Shown one piece after another: positions 60,436-64,000 of a stretch of 64,000 nt of DNA (position 1 is the stretch's first letter; each line of letters begins with the position of its first letter). The stretch is from the NCBI GenBank assembly GCA_029260595.1, contig JAJDCY010000010.1:359675-423674 (forward strand), given 5' to 3'. The DNA is from Phycisphaeraceae bacterium (GTDB lineage Bacteria; Planctomycetota; Phycisphaerae; Phycisphaerales; Phycisphaeraceae). Under the pieces are notes generated by a model. It made no database searches, was not told where the DNA came from, and saw only the letters and a list, made by a program, of their open reading frames with translations. Position numbers and translations under genes: made by a program.

Positions 60436-60617
60436 CCCGAAATCTAATCGCACGCATCCTCTTGCACGGCGGACGGCGCCACCGCCGATTGGTGGTGGGG
60501 CGTGCGTTTGCTAAGGTTTATCGGTGGGCGACCCGCCCAATAGCGGTGACGTTTGCCGCTCAAACGCATTCAGCCGCGGCGATATCAGCCGCTTGGCATC
60601 AGGAAGGACGTCACGCC

Positions 60618-62498
60618 GTGACCACCGCGAATTGGCCATCACTGAACCCGCCACCCCAACTGAAAAAAGCGCTCGAGAGTTGCCGCCACGTCACCGTCGC
60701 GGCCAACGTCGAGCAGCTCACCGCCGCCGCTTGTGGCCGCCCCGAGGACGACCTGCTCGAAGTCACCTACGACCTGCCCGACGGGCGCACCGAGTCCGAA
60801 GCCACCGTCGCCCGTGTCCGCAACGGCATCGTCGCAAACTACCCCGATCCCTACATGAGGCGGCGCGACCCCGACTGCATGGTCATCGCCGACGACCAGC
60901 CGACCGACAAAGCGCGCTACCGCGACCGCTTCGGCAAGTCGTTCGACTCGTTGCGCACGGAAACATTCGATTGGCTGGCGAAACAAGAACTCACTGTTTT
61001 CGCGTTCCAGGCCGGTCAACCCGGGATGGGCACCGATGCGATCGCCGTCGCCCCGACCAACGCCGCGTTTTTCGCGCTCGGCCTGGCGCTGCTCCAGGGA
61101 ATCCGCGACCCGGCCGACCTTCCGTCCGGGTTCAACCCGCAGACGATTATTTACGTGGCCCCGCCGTTTCGACACACGCATTTCGCCGGCAAGCAGGTCG
61201 TCGTTCATGACCGCACCGGCGGGCTGCACGAGATCTTCGCGTACAACCTGTACCCCGGCCCCAGCGCGAAGAAAGGCATCTACGGTGCGCTGATCCGCCA
61301 GGGTGCGGAGGAAGGCTGGATCACCGCGCACTGCTCGGCCGTCCAGGTCGTCACCCCTTACGACAACGTCGTCACCATCATGCACGAGGGGGCCAGCGGT
61401 GGCGGCAAGAGCGAGATGCTCGAACAGCCGCACCGCCTGCCCGACGGCCAACTCCTCGTCGGCCACAATTTTATCTCCGGCGAAGAACGCTACGTTGAAA
61501 TCCCCCGCACGTGCGAGCTGCACCCGGTCTGCGACGACATGGCCCTGTGCCACCCCGCGATCCAGCAGGCCAACCGCAAGCTCTGGCTGACCGATGCCGA
61601 AGACTCCTGGTTTGTCCGCGTCAACCACATCACCGGCTACGGCACCGACATCGACATCGAGCGCCTCACCGCCAATCCGCCGCGCCCGCTGTTGTTCCTG
61701 AACATCGACTCGGTCCCCAACAGCCGCGCCCTGATCTGGGAGCACATCGAGGACGAACCCGGCAAGCCGTGCCCCAACCCGCGCGTCGTCATCCCGCGCA
61801 CCATCATCCCCAACATCGTCAATGAACCGGTGAGCATCGACATCCGCAGCATCGGCATCCGCACGCCACCGTTCACGCAGGAAAAGCCCAGCTACGGGAT
61901 CATCGGGATCTGCCACATTCTTCCGCCGGCGTTGGCGTGGGTATGGCGGTTGGTCGCCCCGCGCGGCTACGCCAACCCGAGCATCGTCGGCTCGGACAAA
62001 ATGTCCAGCGAGGGTGTCGGCAGCTATTGGCCGTTCGCCACCGGCCGACGAGTCGACCAGGCCAACCTCATCCTCCGCCAGATCGAACAAACCCCCGCGA
62101 CGCGCTACGTCGTGATCCCCAACCAGCACATCGGCGCATGGGAGGTCGGTTTCATGCCCCAGTGGCTCGCACGCGACTACCTCGCCCGACGCGGCAGCGC
62201 CAAGTTTTCCGACGCCCAGATCAGCCCAGCCGTCTGCCCGCTGCTCGGCTACACCCTCAACTCGATGCGCATCGAGGGTGTTCGCATGCCCCGCCGTTTG
62301 CTCGATGTCGCCCTCCAGCCGGAGGTCGGCCCGGAAGGCTACGCCAAGGGCGCCGCGATCCTCCGCGACTTCTTCACCGAAAACCTCATGCAATACCTCG
62401 AGCCCGATCTGTCACCGCTCGGCCGCGAGATCATCCAGGCCACGCTCGACGGTGCCGCCGTCACTGACTACGAACGCCTGCTGCCGCAATCGCGATGA
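60618..62498 (+). CDS. DUF4914 family PEPCK-like P-loop protein
   Basis: 626 residues from the GTG at 60618, with AGGAAGGA about nine bases upstream; the frame is open further upstream without family-like sequence. The sequence shows the DUF4914 pattern known from Planctomycetes and Bacteroidetes: VTYDLPDGRTESEATVARVRNGIVANYPDPYMRRRDPDCMV, IIYVAPPFRHTHFAGKQVVVHDR and FAYNLYPGPSAKKGIYG, with a phosphate-binding loop HEGASGGGKSEM (P-loop about 258-266) like that of PEP carboxykinase and HPr kinase. Its reaction is unknown; an ATP- or PP-dependent kinase or carboxykinase is the reasonable guess. A small RNA gene lies 133 bases downstream. Confidence 0.85.
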   Translation: MTTANWPSLNPPPQLKKALESCRHVTVAANVEQLTAAACGRPEDDLLEVTYDLPDGRTESEATVARVRNGIVANYPDPYMRRRDPDCMVIADDQPTDKARYRDRFGKSFDSLRTETFDWLAKQELTVFAFQAGQPGMGTDAIAVAPTNAAFFALGLALLQGIRDPADLPSGFNPQTIIYVAPPFRHTHFAGKQVVVHDRTGGLHEIFAYNLYPGPSAKKGIYGALIRQGAEEGWITAHCSAVQVVTPYDNVVTIMHEGASGGGKSEMLEQPHRLPDGQLLVGHNFISGEERYVEIPRTCELHPVCDDMALCHPAIQQANRKLWLTDAEDSWFVRVNHITGYGTDIDIERLTANPPRPLLFLNIDSVPNSRALIWEHIEDEPGKPCPNPRVVIPRTIIPNIVNEPVSIDIRSIGIRTPPFTQEKPSYGIIGICHILPPALAWVWRLVAPRGYANPSIVGSDKMSSEGVGSYWPFATGRRVDQANLILRQIEQTPATRYVVIPNQHIGAWEVGFMPQWLARDYLARRGSAKFSDAQISPAVCPLLGYTLNSMRIEGVRMPRRLLDVALQPEVGPEGYAKGAAILRDFFTENLMQYLEPDLSPLGREIIQATLDGAAVTDYERLLPQSR

Positions 62499-62597
62499 GG
62501 GCAGGCTCCGATCCAACCACCAGGCCGGAGCAAGATCGCCAATGGCTTGTTTACGTTCGTTACTGTTGAGCAAGCTAGCGGCAGTATGCGACAGCTC

Positions 62598-62625
62598 TTG
62601 AAATCAGGCAAAATGTAGCTATAAT
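62598..62625 (+). promoter_or_regulatory. near-consensus sigma-70 promoter
   Basis: TTGAAA (62598-62603) and a perfect TATAAT (62620-62625) are separated by 16 bases. No protein gene starts downstream on this strand; a hairpin-rich region follows and ends in an intrinsic terminator. A transcript would start at about 62632. Confidence 0.82.
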
Positions 62626-62631
62626 AGACAA

Positions 62632-62760
62632 GAATCCCGAGGATGGCCGCTAAGCCATCCCCGGGCAAGCACTGTCTTGCCGAACGGATCCTGCTTGATT
62701 GTGAATCCGTTCGACTAAGAGGTCATCGCTCCCGCCGCTCGACAGCGTGGCGGGAGCTTT
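62632..62760 (+). ncRNA. predicted small RNA with three hairpins and a terminator
   Basis: About 129 bases between a near-consensus promoter and an intrinsic terminator, in a gap with no gene on this strand. Hairpins: 62636-62665 (GGATGGC/GCCATCC with a CCCG/CGGG extension and one mismatch), 62664-62681 (GGCAAG/CTTGCC), and 62681-62713 (perfect nine-base stem CGAACGGAT/ATCCGTTCG with a 15-base loop). The first two share their outer two bases, so they may alternate. No open frame of note is inside. I cannot match it to 6S, SRP, tmRNA or RNase P RNA. It lies between the DUF4914 gene and the convergent DUF5343-like gene. Confidence 0.7.
62728..62760 (+). terminator. intrinsic terminator of the small RNA
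   Basis: A perfect nine-base stem (GCTCCCGCC at 62728-62736, GGCGGGAGC at 62749-62757) with a twelve-base loop that can pair further (GCT/AGC) is followed by TTT. On the minus strand the stem lacks a T-run, so it does not serve the DUF5343-like gene. Confidence 0.8.
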
Positions 62761-62772
62761 CGTCTATCCTCA

Positions 62773-63474
62773 TCAAACGACACCTCCTTCCTGATCTACG
62801 TTCTGCTTCGCATACTGCTCAACAGCAGCGAACATCGCCTTCAACATAGGCAGATCGGCTTCAGTCAAGTTCTTGGGCACCGAAATCTCGCCAGCCAGTT
62901 TGCCCGCAATCGGAATCGGAAATCGCACCGTTTCTGACAGAGTCTTAGTCGTGTGCCCCCCTCCACTACCATTGCTAGTTTGCGGCGTGGGGGCCTTTTT
63001 TTTCCTTCGGTTCAGTGGCGGCGCGCTCCCAAACTTGCCCTTTGCAATCGACGGCGATACCGGCAGCCCAACGTCTTGTGCTGCTTGCATTAGAAACCGG
63101 CAGGCCGGAGATACAATCGAGGGCCCGATTTCATCGCCGAACGAACGTTTCAGGGATGCGACAGTACCACTCTTAAGAAAGGAGAGCTGGTCGGCATAGT
63201 GCCGCTCAATCAAGGATTTCAATGTGCCGTTCCATGCCTCGCCTTCACCCCCGGCAAGACGGCGGAACTCTTGAGACGGCTTCTCTTTGTCGTCGATCAA
63301 CTCAAAGAATTTCAGTGCCCCGAACAAGAGCGTACGTGCGCTACCATTCATGCGGTCGTACATGGAGTAGTCGATTGTGTCCGGCACGTGGTCGAGCCCG
63401 GCGATGGAACTTTTGAAAGTCTTATAGGCGACATATGGCGGGGTTCGTTTCTTCAATTTCTGGTCGCTGGCCAT
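62773..63474 (-). CDS. DUF5343-like protein, unknown function
   Basis: 233 residues from the ATG at 63474, which follows AAGGAG by eight bases; a longer frame to 63615 lacks such a site. The N-terminal 150 residues (PPYVAYKTFKSSIAGLDHVPD, then SARTLLFGALKFFELIDDKEKPSQEF) match the two-winged-helix pattern of DUF5343 proteins. A Lys/Pro/Gly-rich linker leads to a C-terminal segment with FPIPIAGKLAGEISVPKNLTEADLPMLKAMFAAVEQYA. GC content is lower than average, and DUF5343 genes often occur in mobile or defence islands. The gene stands alone. Confidence 0.7.
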   Translation of the reverse strand: MASDQKLKKRTPPYVAYKTFKSSIAGLDHVPDTIDYSMYDRMNGSARTLLFGALKFFELIDDKEKPSQEFRRLAGGEGEAWNGTLKSLIERHYADQLSFLKSGTVASLKRSFGDEIGPSIVSPACRFLMQAAQDVGLPVSPSIAKGKFGSAPPLNRRKKKAPTPQTSNGSGGGHTTKTLSETVRFPIPIAGKLAGEISVPKNLTEADLPMLKAMFAAVEQYAKQNVDQEGGVV

Positions 63475-64000
63475 TTCTGGGCTCCTTATTGGGGGGGGGC
63501 TCCAAAAACTGTAGTCCGCCCATGGAAAAAATGCAACTGTCCAAGATGCGAAAAAAGCAAAAGGCGTTTTTGCGCTAATTTGATCGGGGCTTGTTTGGTG
63601 CATTCTGGAACGCAAGAATAGGTGATTTCGGCATTGTATAAATGATTATGGTTGTTCTTGGCCTCTCGGGGCTCGCGGAGATATGGGGTTTTTTGATCGA
63701 GCGATTTTATCGAAAGGGCGAAAATTTAAAATCAAGAGGCGATATTGGGTGGTTTGCCGGCCTGCCCATTGCTTGGCAAGGCCGGGCTAACGAGAACGTC
63801 AATGACATGCCATGTGCGACCAAAGATTGCTGGCAAATAGTGTTGTGACTGACAACAAAAAGGGGGGAGAGGCAGCCGATAATTCCGCCGGGTGGCACCG
63901 CAGGCTTGCCCCGCAGTGCCGTATGACGAGCGCCAGCCGGTGTGATCTCCGGCAACTCGACCTCTATCCGTCCACATGTCTAACTCACCCAGTTAGCTCA
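63475..64000. other. gene-poor end region
   Basis: No convincing gene is seen. A 68-codon frame on the plus strand (63642-63848) and an 82-codon frame on the minus strand (63707-63955) overlap each other, lack good ribosome binding sites and have no family-like sequence; the latter may be the edge of a gene outside the window. The part 63600-63740 is AT-rich. A strong hairpin is marked separately. Confidence 0.5.
63894..63920. repeat. strong hairpin, probably a palindromic repeat unit
   Basis: An 11-base stem (GGCACCGCAGG at 63894-63904 and CCCGCAGTGCC at 63910-63920, with two wobble pairs) encloses a five-base loop CTTGC. No T-run follows on either strand, so it is more like an interspersed palindrome than a terminator. 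No second copy occurs in the window. Confidence 0.55.

What the first reader, a model, noticed from the sequence alone, without database searches (positions are those of the whole stretch)
62598..62760. Candidate new small RNA with textbook promoter and terminator
TTGAAA, 16 bases, TATAAT, then three stable hairpins and an intrinsic terminator within 130 bases, in an intergenic gap. The third stem is nine perfect pairs with a 15-base loop, which could be a target-binding loop. Hairpins 1 (extended) and 2 compete for two bases, which would allow a switch. The promoter is by far the best sigma-70 match seen in the window.
Basis: seen in the sequence. Interest (0 to 1): 0.7.

Follow-up and report, generated by a model that had tools for sequence, protein, structure and literature searches.

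The report
Candidate small RNA between converging genes
A bacterial genome of the planctomycete class Phycisphaerae has a gap between two genes that face each other; it carries a convincing start signal, four strong RNA hairpins and a stop signal, so it may well make a short RNA of about 130 bases, but nothing like it was found in any relative and its function is unproven, so it is a plausible but ordinary lead.

Summary
TTGAAA-N16-TATAAT (62598-62625) and four hairpins (62636-62757), the last a weak terminator, lie between two converging genes. The promoter is the best match in the window. Sites this good (16/17-base spacers, at most one mismatch) number 15 in the genome against 1 in the reversed control, so it is probably real; of those 15 it has the most strongly folded downstream RNA (z -4.5; next -3.0). 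The gap separates a DUF4914 gene (+) from a lower-GC, DUF5343-like gene (-), and hairpin 1 is itself terminator-like on the minus strand, so two opposed terminators explain half of the structure without any sRNA. The predicted RNA would be antisense along its whole length to the 3' UTR of the minus gene. No relative was found in Rfam, plasmids, phages, 397 class genomes (single-sequence covariance model) or downstream of homologues of either gene, so conservation could not be tested. Best reading: a lineage-specific, probably cis-antisense sRNA candidate, unproven. Interest is low.

The parts
62598..62625 (+). sigma-70-type promoter TTGAAA-N16-TATAAT
62632..62765 (+). predicted sRNA (start and end inferred from promoter and terminator)
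   Evidence: fold z -4.9 (for 62630-62764); no transcript data
62636..62665 (.). hairpin 1; 5' stem of the sRNA on +, terminator-like with tail ATTCTTGTCT on -
62664..62681 (+). hairpin 2 (6 pairs)
62681..62713 (+). hairpin 3 (9 pairs, 15-nt loop); 8 pairs in the MFE when hairpin 2 is complete
62728..62765 (+). hairpin 4 plus TTTCGTCT tail: intrinsic-terminator-like
60462..62498 (+). DUF4914 gene upstream (true start probably further in); could share the terminator
   Evidence: Pfam PF16260 E 8.9e-299
62773..63474 (-). convergent DUF5343-like gene, 233 aa, in a lower-GC stretch; proposed cis target
62555..62591 (+). left arm of a diverged inverted repeat
62808..62833 (-). right arm of that inverted repeat, inside the minus gene

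Best explanation
A lineage-specific intergenic small RNA gene. A housekeeping-type promoter at 62598-62625 starts a transcript of about 130 nt near 62632, directly before a stable 5' stem, and it ends at the hairpin 62728-62757. The same DNA is the convergent 3' UTR of the minus-strand DUF5343-like gene, whose own mRNA most likely ends at hairpin 1 read leftward, so the two RNAs are complementary over the whole sRNA. The most likely effect, which is inferred, is in cis: base pairing (the 15-nt HP3 loop is the obvious contact point) with the 3' UTR of this probably acquired gene lowers its mRNA level or translation, as in known convergent antisense pairs. Shown: promoter, hairpins, tail, convergent layout, complementarity. 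Inferred: transcription, start and end, mRNA end, duplex formation, regulation.
For: The promoter is the only 11/12 site of the window; one-mismatch sites are 15 against 1 in the reversed control genome-wide, and only 7 of 5000 shuffles of the gap reach that score. Downstream structure is strong and is the strongest among the 15 such promoters of the genome. HP2+HP3, which neither terminator needs, are themselves unusually stable (z -4.7). Both terminators are in place and the genes converge. No Hfq was found and the loop has no target near a start codon, which favours cis over trans action.
Against: No transcript data. No homologue anywhere searched. Two opposed terminators would give HP1 and HP4 anyway. 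The AT-rich tail of the leftward terminator makes a TATAAT there somewhat less surprising. Both U-tracts are weak. Regulation of the minus gene rests on position alone.
Confidence: 0.45

Rival explanations
1. Only a terminator region. Two opposed intrinsic terminators (HP4 for the DUF4914 transcript on +, HP1 for the DUF5343-like transcript on -) separate convergent genes; the promoter match is fortuitous or weakly used and no functional RNA exists.
For: Both hairpins score as terminators in the right directions. DUF4914 orthologues in the family are often followed by plain terminators. The covariance-model hits outside ORFs are A-tract hairpins of terminator type. Terminators are over-represented between convergent genes in Zymomonas (PMC7566282).
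Against: Does not explain the promoter, unusual genome-wide, nor HP2 and HP3. HP1 and HP4 lie 62 nt apart instead of forming one shared bidirectional hairpin.
Confidence: 0.35
2. A trans-acting sRNA that binds distant mRNAs through the 15-nt HP3 loop.
For: Own promoter, 5' stem, large loop. 7 other sites in the genome match the loop's complement with at most 2 mismatches, against 1 in the control.
Against: All of those sites lie inside coding sequence or antisense to it, none just before a gene start. No Hfq found in the (88% complete) genome. The U-tail is short.
Confidence: 0.08
3. A decayed inverted duplication: the left part of the gap is a degenerate, inverted copy of the 3' end of the minus gene, left by the event that brought the gene in, and the hairpins are relics of that palindrome centred on HP3.
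For: Core arms 62555-62591 / 62808-62833 beat all 3000 shuffles and the whole mirror alignment beats 2000 shuffles under three of four scoring schemes. The gene is low in GC and sporadic.
Against: Parts outside the core arms are weak (p 0.02-0.07), and 29 of 1268 other window positions score as high in the same test. No second copy in the genome. It leaves the promoter unexplained and does not exclude transcription.
Confidence: 0.12

Closest known systems
Convergent 3'-overlapping cis-antisense RNAs (RatA/txpA, SR4/bsrG, SR5/bsrE of Bacillus subtilis; PMC7430163)
   Same: sRNA of 100-220 nt with its own promoter and terminator, transcribed towards the partner gene and complementary to its mRNA 3' end, Hfq-independent for SR4; partner on a probably acquired stretch.
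   Different: Partners there are small toxins of 30-59 aa; here a 233-aa DUF5343-like protein. The RNA here would lie wholly in the 3' UTR. No expression data, no sequence relation.
sRNAs transcribed from an own promoter at the 3' end of an upstream gene and sharing its terminator (reviewed in PMC9438474)
   Same: Promoter 100 nt downstream of the DUF4914 stop; no + terminator-like site between the two, so HP4 could serve both transcripts.
   Different: Not conserved with DUF4914; no Hfq found.
Opposed or bidirectional intrinsic terminators between convergent genes (PMC7566282)
   Same: Strong GC stems with U-rich tails facing both ways between convergent genes.
   Different: Two further hairpins between the terminators and a strong + promoter just outside.

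Membership tests
Any Rfam family | score at or above the family's gathering threshold | tested here: not met
Independent intergenic sRNA gene | own promoter | tested here: met
   sequence level only:
Independent intergenic sRNA gene | stable structure and intrinsic terminator | tested here: met
   U-tract is weak
Independent intergenic sRNA gene | discrete transcript | not testable with these tools
   no RNA data
Independent intergenic sRNA gene | conservation or covariation of stems in relatives | tested here: inconclusive
   no homologue found to align; no congener among the relatives searched
Type I toxin-antitoxin pair | partner is a small toxic protein (known ones about 30-85 aa) | tested here: not met
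   partner 233 aa, DUF5343-like
Cis-antisense RNA | complementary to an mRNA transcribed from the opposite strand | tested here: inconclusive
   position and complementarity by sequence; whether the mRNA extends there is inferred
Hfq-dependent trans sRNA | Hfq present | tested here: not met
   no PF17209 match, positive in 5 control genomes; the MAG is 88% complete
Hfq-dependent trans sRNA | seed complementary to translation start regions | tested here: not met
   HP3 loop only

The most novel reading that the evidence does not exclude
The sRNA is a dedicated, antitoxin-like cis regulator of a mobile DUF5343-family gene with a toxic or defence role, that is, an RNA-controlled module with a large protein partner; the opposed hairpin pair beside the homologue in L090 would be a distant parallel.
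Probability: 0.05. Interest if true: 0.5.

Novelty: new member of a known kind. Interest (0 to 1): 0.2.

Why it matters
If transcribed, it would be a sequence-level candidate for a regulatory RNA in Phycisphaerae; two literature searches here brought up no paper devoted to planctomycete sRNAs, though the library held is partial. It would point to a testable antisense control of a probably acquired gene. The genome-wide promoter test also indicates that this lineage uses TTGACA/TATAAT-type promoters. Nothing here changes a general view.

Tried and rejected
Rfam at gathering and at a lax threshold: nothing. DNA similarity in 60 relatives: only short fragments at chance level. Plasmids and phages: none. 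Single-sequence covariance model over 397 class genomes: all other hits at or below 24.8 bits (the element's own reverse complement scores 24.5), in ORFs or plain terminators where examined. Synteny with DUF4914 orthologues: no equivalent. 3' flanks of six DUF5343-like homologues: no common RNA; L090 has an opposed terminator pair but no sequence match. Mobile-element ends around the inserted gene: no convincing terminal repeats, no second copy in the genome. Whole-region palindrome: considered and demoted to a relic hypothesis because its outer and inner parts are weak. HP3 loop as a trans seed: no site just before a gene start. Known RNAs beside the other 14 strong promoters: only a tRNA-Val in one of the loci. 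Viral contigs with an HP2-HP3 pattern: none.

Full report
What is there. On + at 62598-62625 lies TTGAAA-N16-TATAAT, followed by hairpins at 62636-62665, 62664-62681, 62681-62713 and 62728-62757, the last with tail TTTCGTCT. The 135-nt RNA folds at -64.9 kcal/mol with z -4.9, no shuffle as stable; 0 of 150 random window segments reach that z. Separately, HP1, HP3 and HP4 have z of -5.0, -4.4 and -5.1, HP2 -2.2, and HP2+HP3 -4.7. The 9-pair stem with a 15-nt loop is correct. The contested bases exist (62664-62665; also 62681 between HP2 and HP3), but the fold with extended HP1 is only 1.6 kcal/mol above the MFE, which is routine alternative pairing rather than evidence for a switch.

Is the promoter more than chance? 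In the window it is the only 11/12 site; four reach 10/12 when spacers of 15-19 are allowed. Seven of 5000 shuffles of the gap reach 11/12. Genome-wide (2.88 Mb, 88% complete) it is the sole TTGA[AC]A-N16-18-TATAAT. Sites with at most one mismatch are 7 (N16) and 8 (N17), against 0 and 1 for the reversed pattern. The genome thus appears to use this promoter type, and this site is probably functional. Of the 15 sites it has the most strongly structured downstream 135 nt (z -4.5; next -3.0, the others between -1.1 and +1.5). Its inferred +1 (about 62632) lies four bases before HP1.

Context. The gap 62499-62772 separates a DUF4914 gene on + from a 233-aa gene on - (62773-63474). The latter has no Pfam match itself, but its homologues L090 (37% identity) and L091 match DUF5343 below the curated cut-off. 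It lies in a lower-GC stretch (0.48-0.58 against about 0.64) that ends at a YajQ-like gene, named from the ORF sequence only. It is sporadic: 4 other genomes of 397 in the class and 2 more, distant ones, among 392 in the phylum. Most likely it is an acquired single gene. The scanner scores HP1 as a terminator on - (tail ATTCTTGTCT) and HP4 on +. The predicted sRNA therefore occupies just the interval between two opposed terminators and is complementary over its whole length to the 3' UTR expected for the minus gene. Terminators between convergent genes are common (PMC7566282), and DUF4914 orthologues in this family are often followed directly by plain terminators.

Conservation. No Rfam match. 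No DNA match in 60 relatives beyond chance-level fragments, nor in plasmids or phages. A covariance model from the single sequence finds itself at 186 bits; the next best in 397 class genomes is 24.8 bits, comparable to the 24.5 bits of its own reverse complement, and the hits examined lie in ORFs or in plain terminators. Homologues of the minus gene have no matching RNA downstream; L090 has an opposed hairpin pair of its own (z -8.3). A negative with a single-sequence model is weak evidence.

Mechanism. The best-supported reading is a lineage-specific sRNA acting in cis on the minus gene, by analogy with convergent 3'-overlapping antisense RNAs such as RatA/txpA and SR4/bsrG (PMC7430163). It is not a type I toxin-antitoxin pair by membership, since the partner has 233 aa. 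A trans role is less likely: no Hfq was found (positive in control genomes), and the loop's near-complements lie in or antisense to coding sequence. The main rival is that only two terminators matter and the promoter is fortuitous.

Inverted repeat. 62555-62591 matches the reverse complement of 62808-62833, inside the minus gene, and a weaker mirror similarity spans 62500-62896 around HP3. The core arms beat all 3000 shuffles; the remaining parts have p 0.02-0.07, and 29 of 1268 other positions of the window score as high. A decayed inverted duplication of the gene's 3' end is possible; it would explain how the hairpins arose, not what they do.

Verdict. Whether a functional RNA exists is undecided (about even odds), and the novelty is that of one more unassigned sRNA candidate.

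Noticed in passing
window 62555-62591 and 62808-62833: Diverged inverted repeat: the stretch upstream of the promoter resembles the 3' end of the minus-strand gene in mirror orientation, with an 11-nt insertion.
   Followed up: partly
window 62500-64000 and on to L129:2330: A lower-GC single-gene insertion (DUF5343-like, sporadic in the class) between a DUF4914 gene and a YajQ-like gene.
   Followed up: partly
L144 (G000:C10:766928-766956): Another strong promoter of this genome, TTGACA-N17-TTTAAT, followed by a fairly structured 135-nt stretch (z -3.0) with no long ORF close downstream: a second sRNA candidate.
   Followed up: no
L090:1154-1243: Downstream of a DUF5343-like homologue: two strong opposed terminator hairpins (z -8.3) with no + strand gene obvious upstream and a loose promoter-like TTGCGG-N16-TACAAT before them.
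   Followed up: partly
L009 (JAJRPE010000070.1): The closest DUF4914 relative (73%) is in a MAG labelled Hydrogenedentota, closer than the orthologues in the window's own family (up to 63%): transfer, misbinning or misnaming.
   Followed up: no
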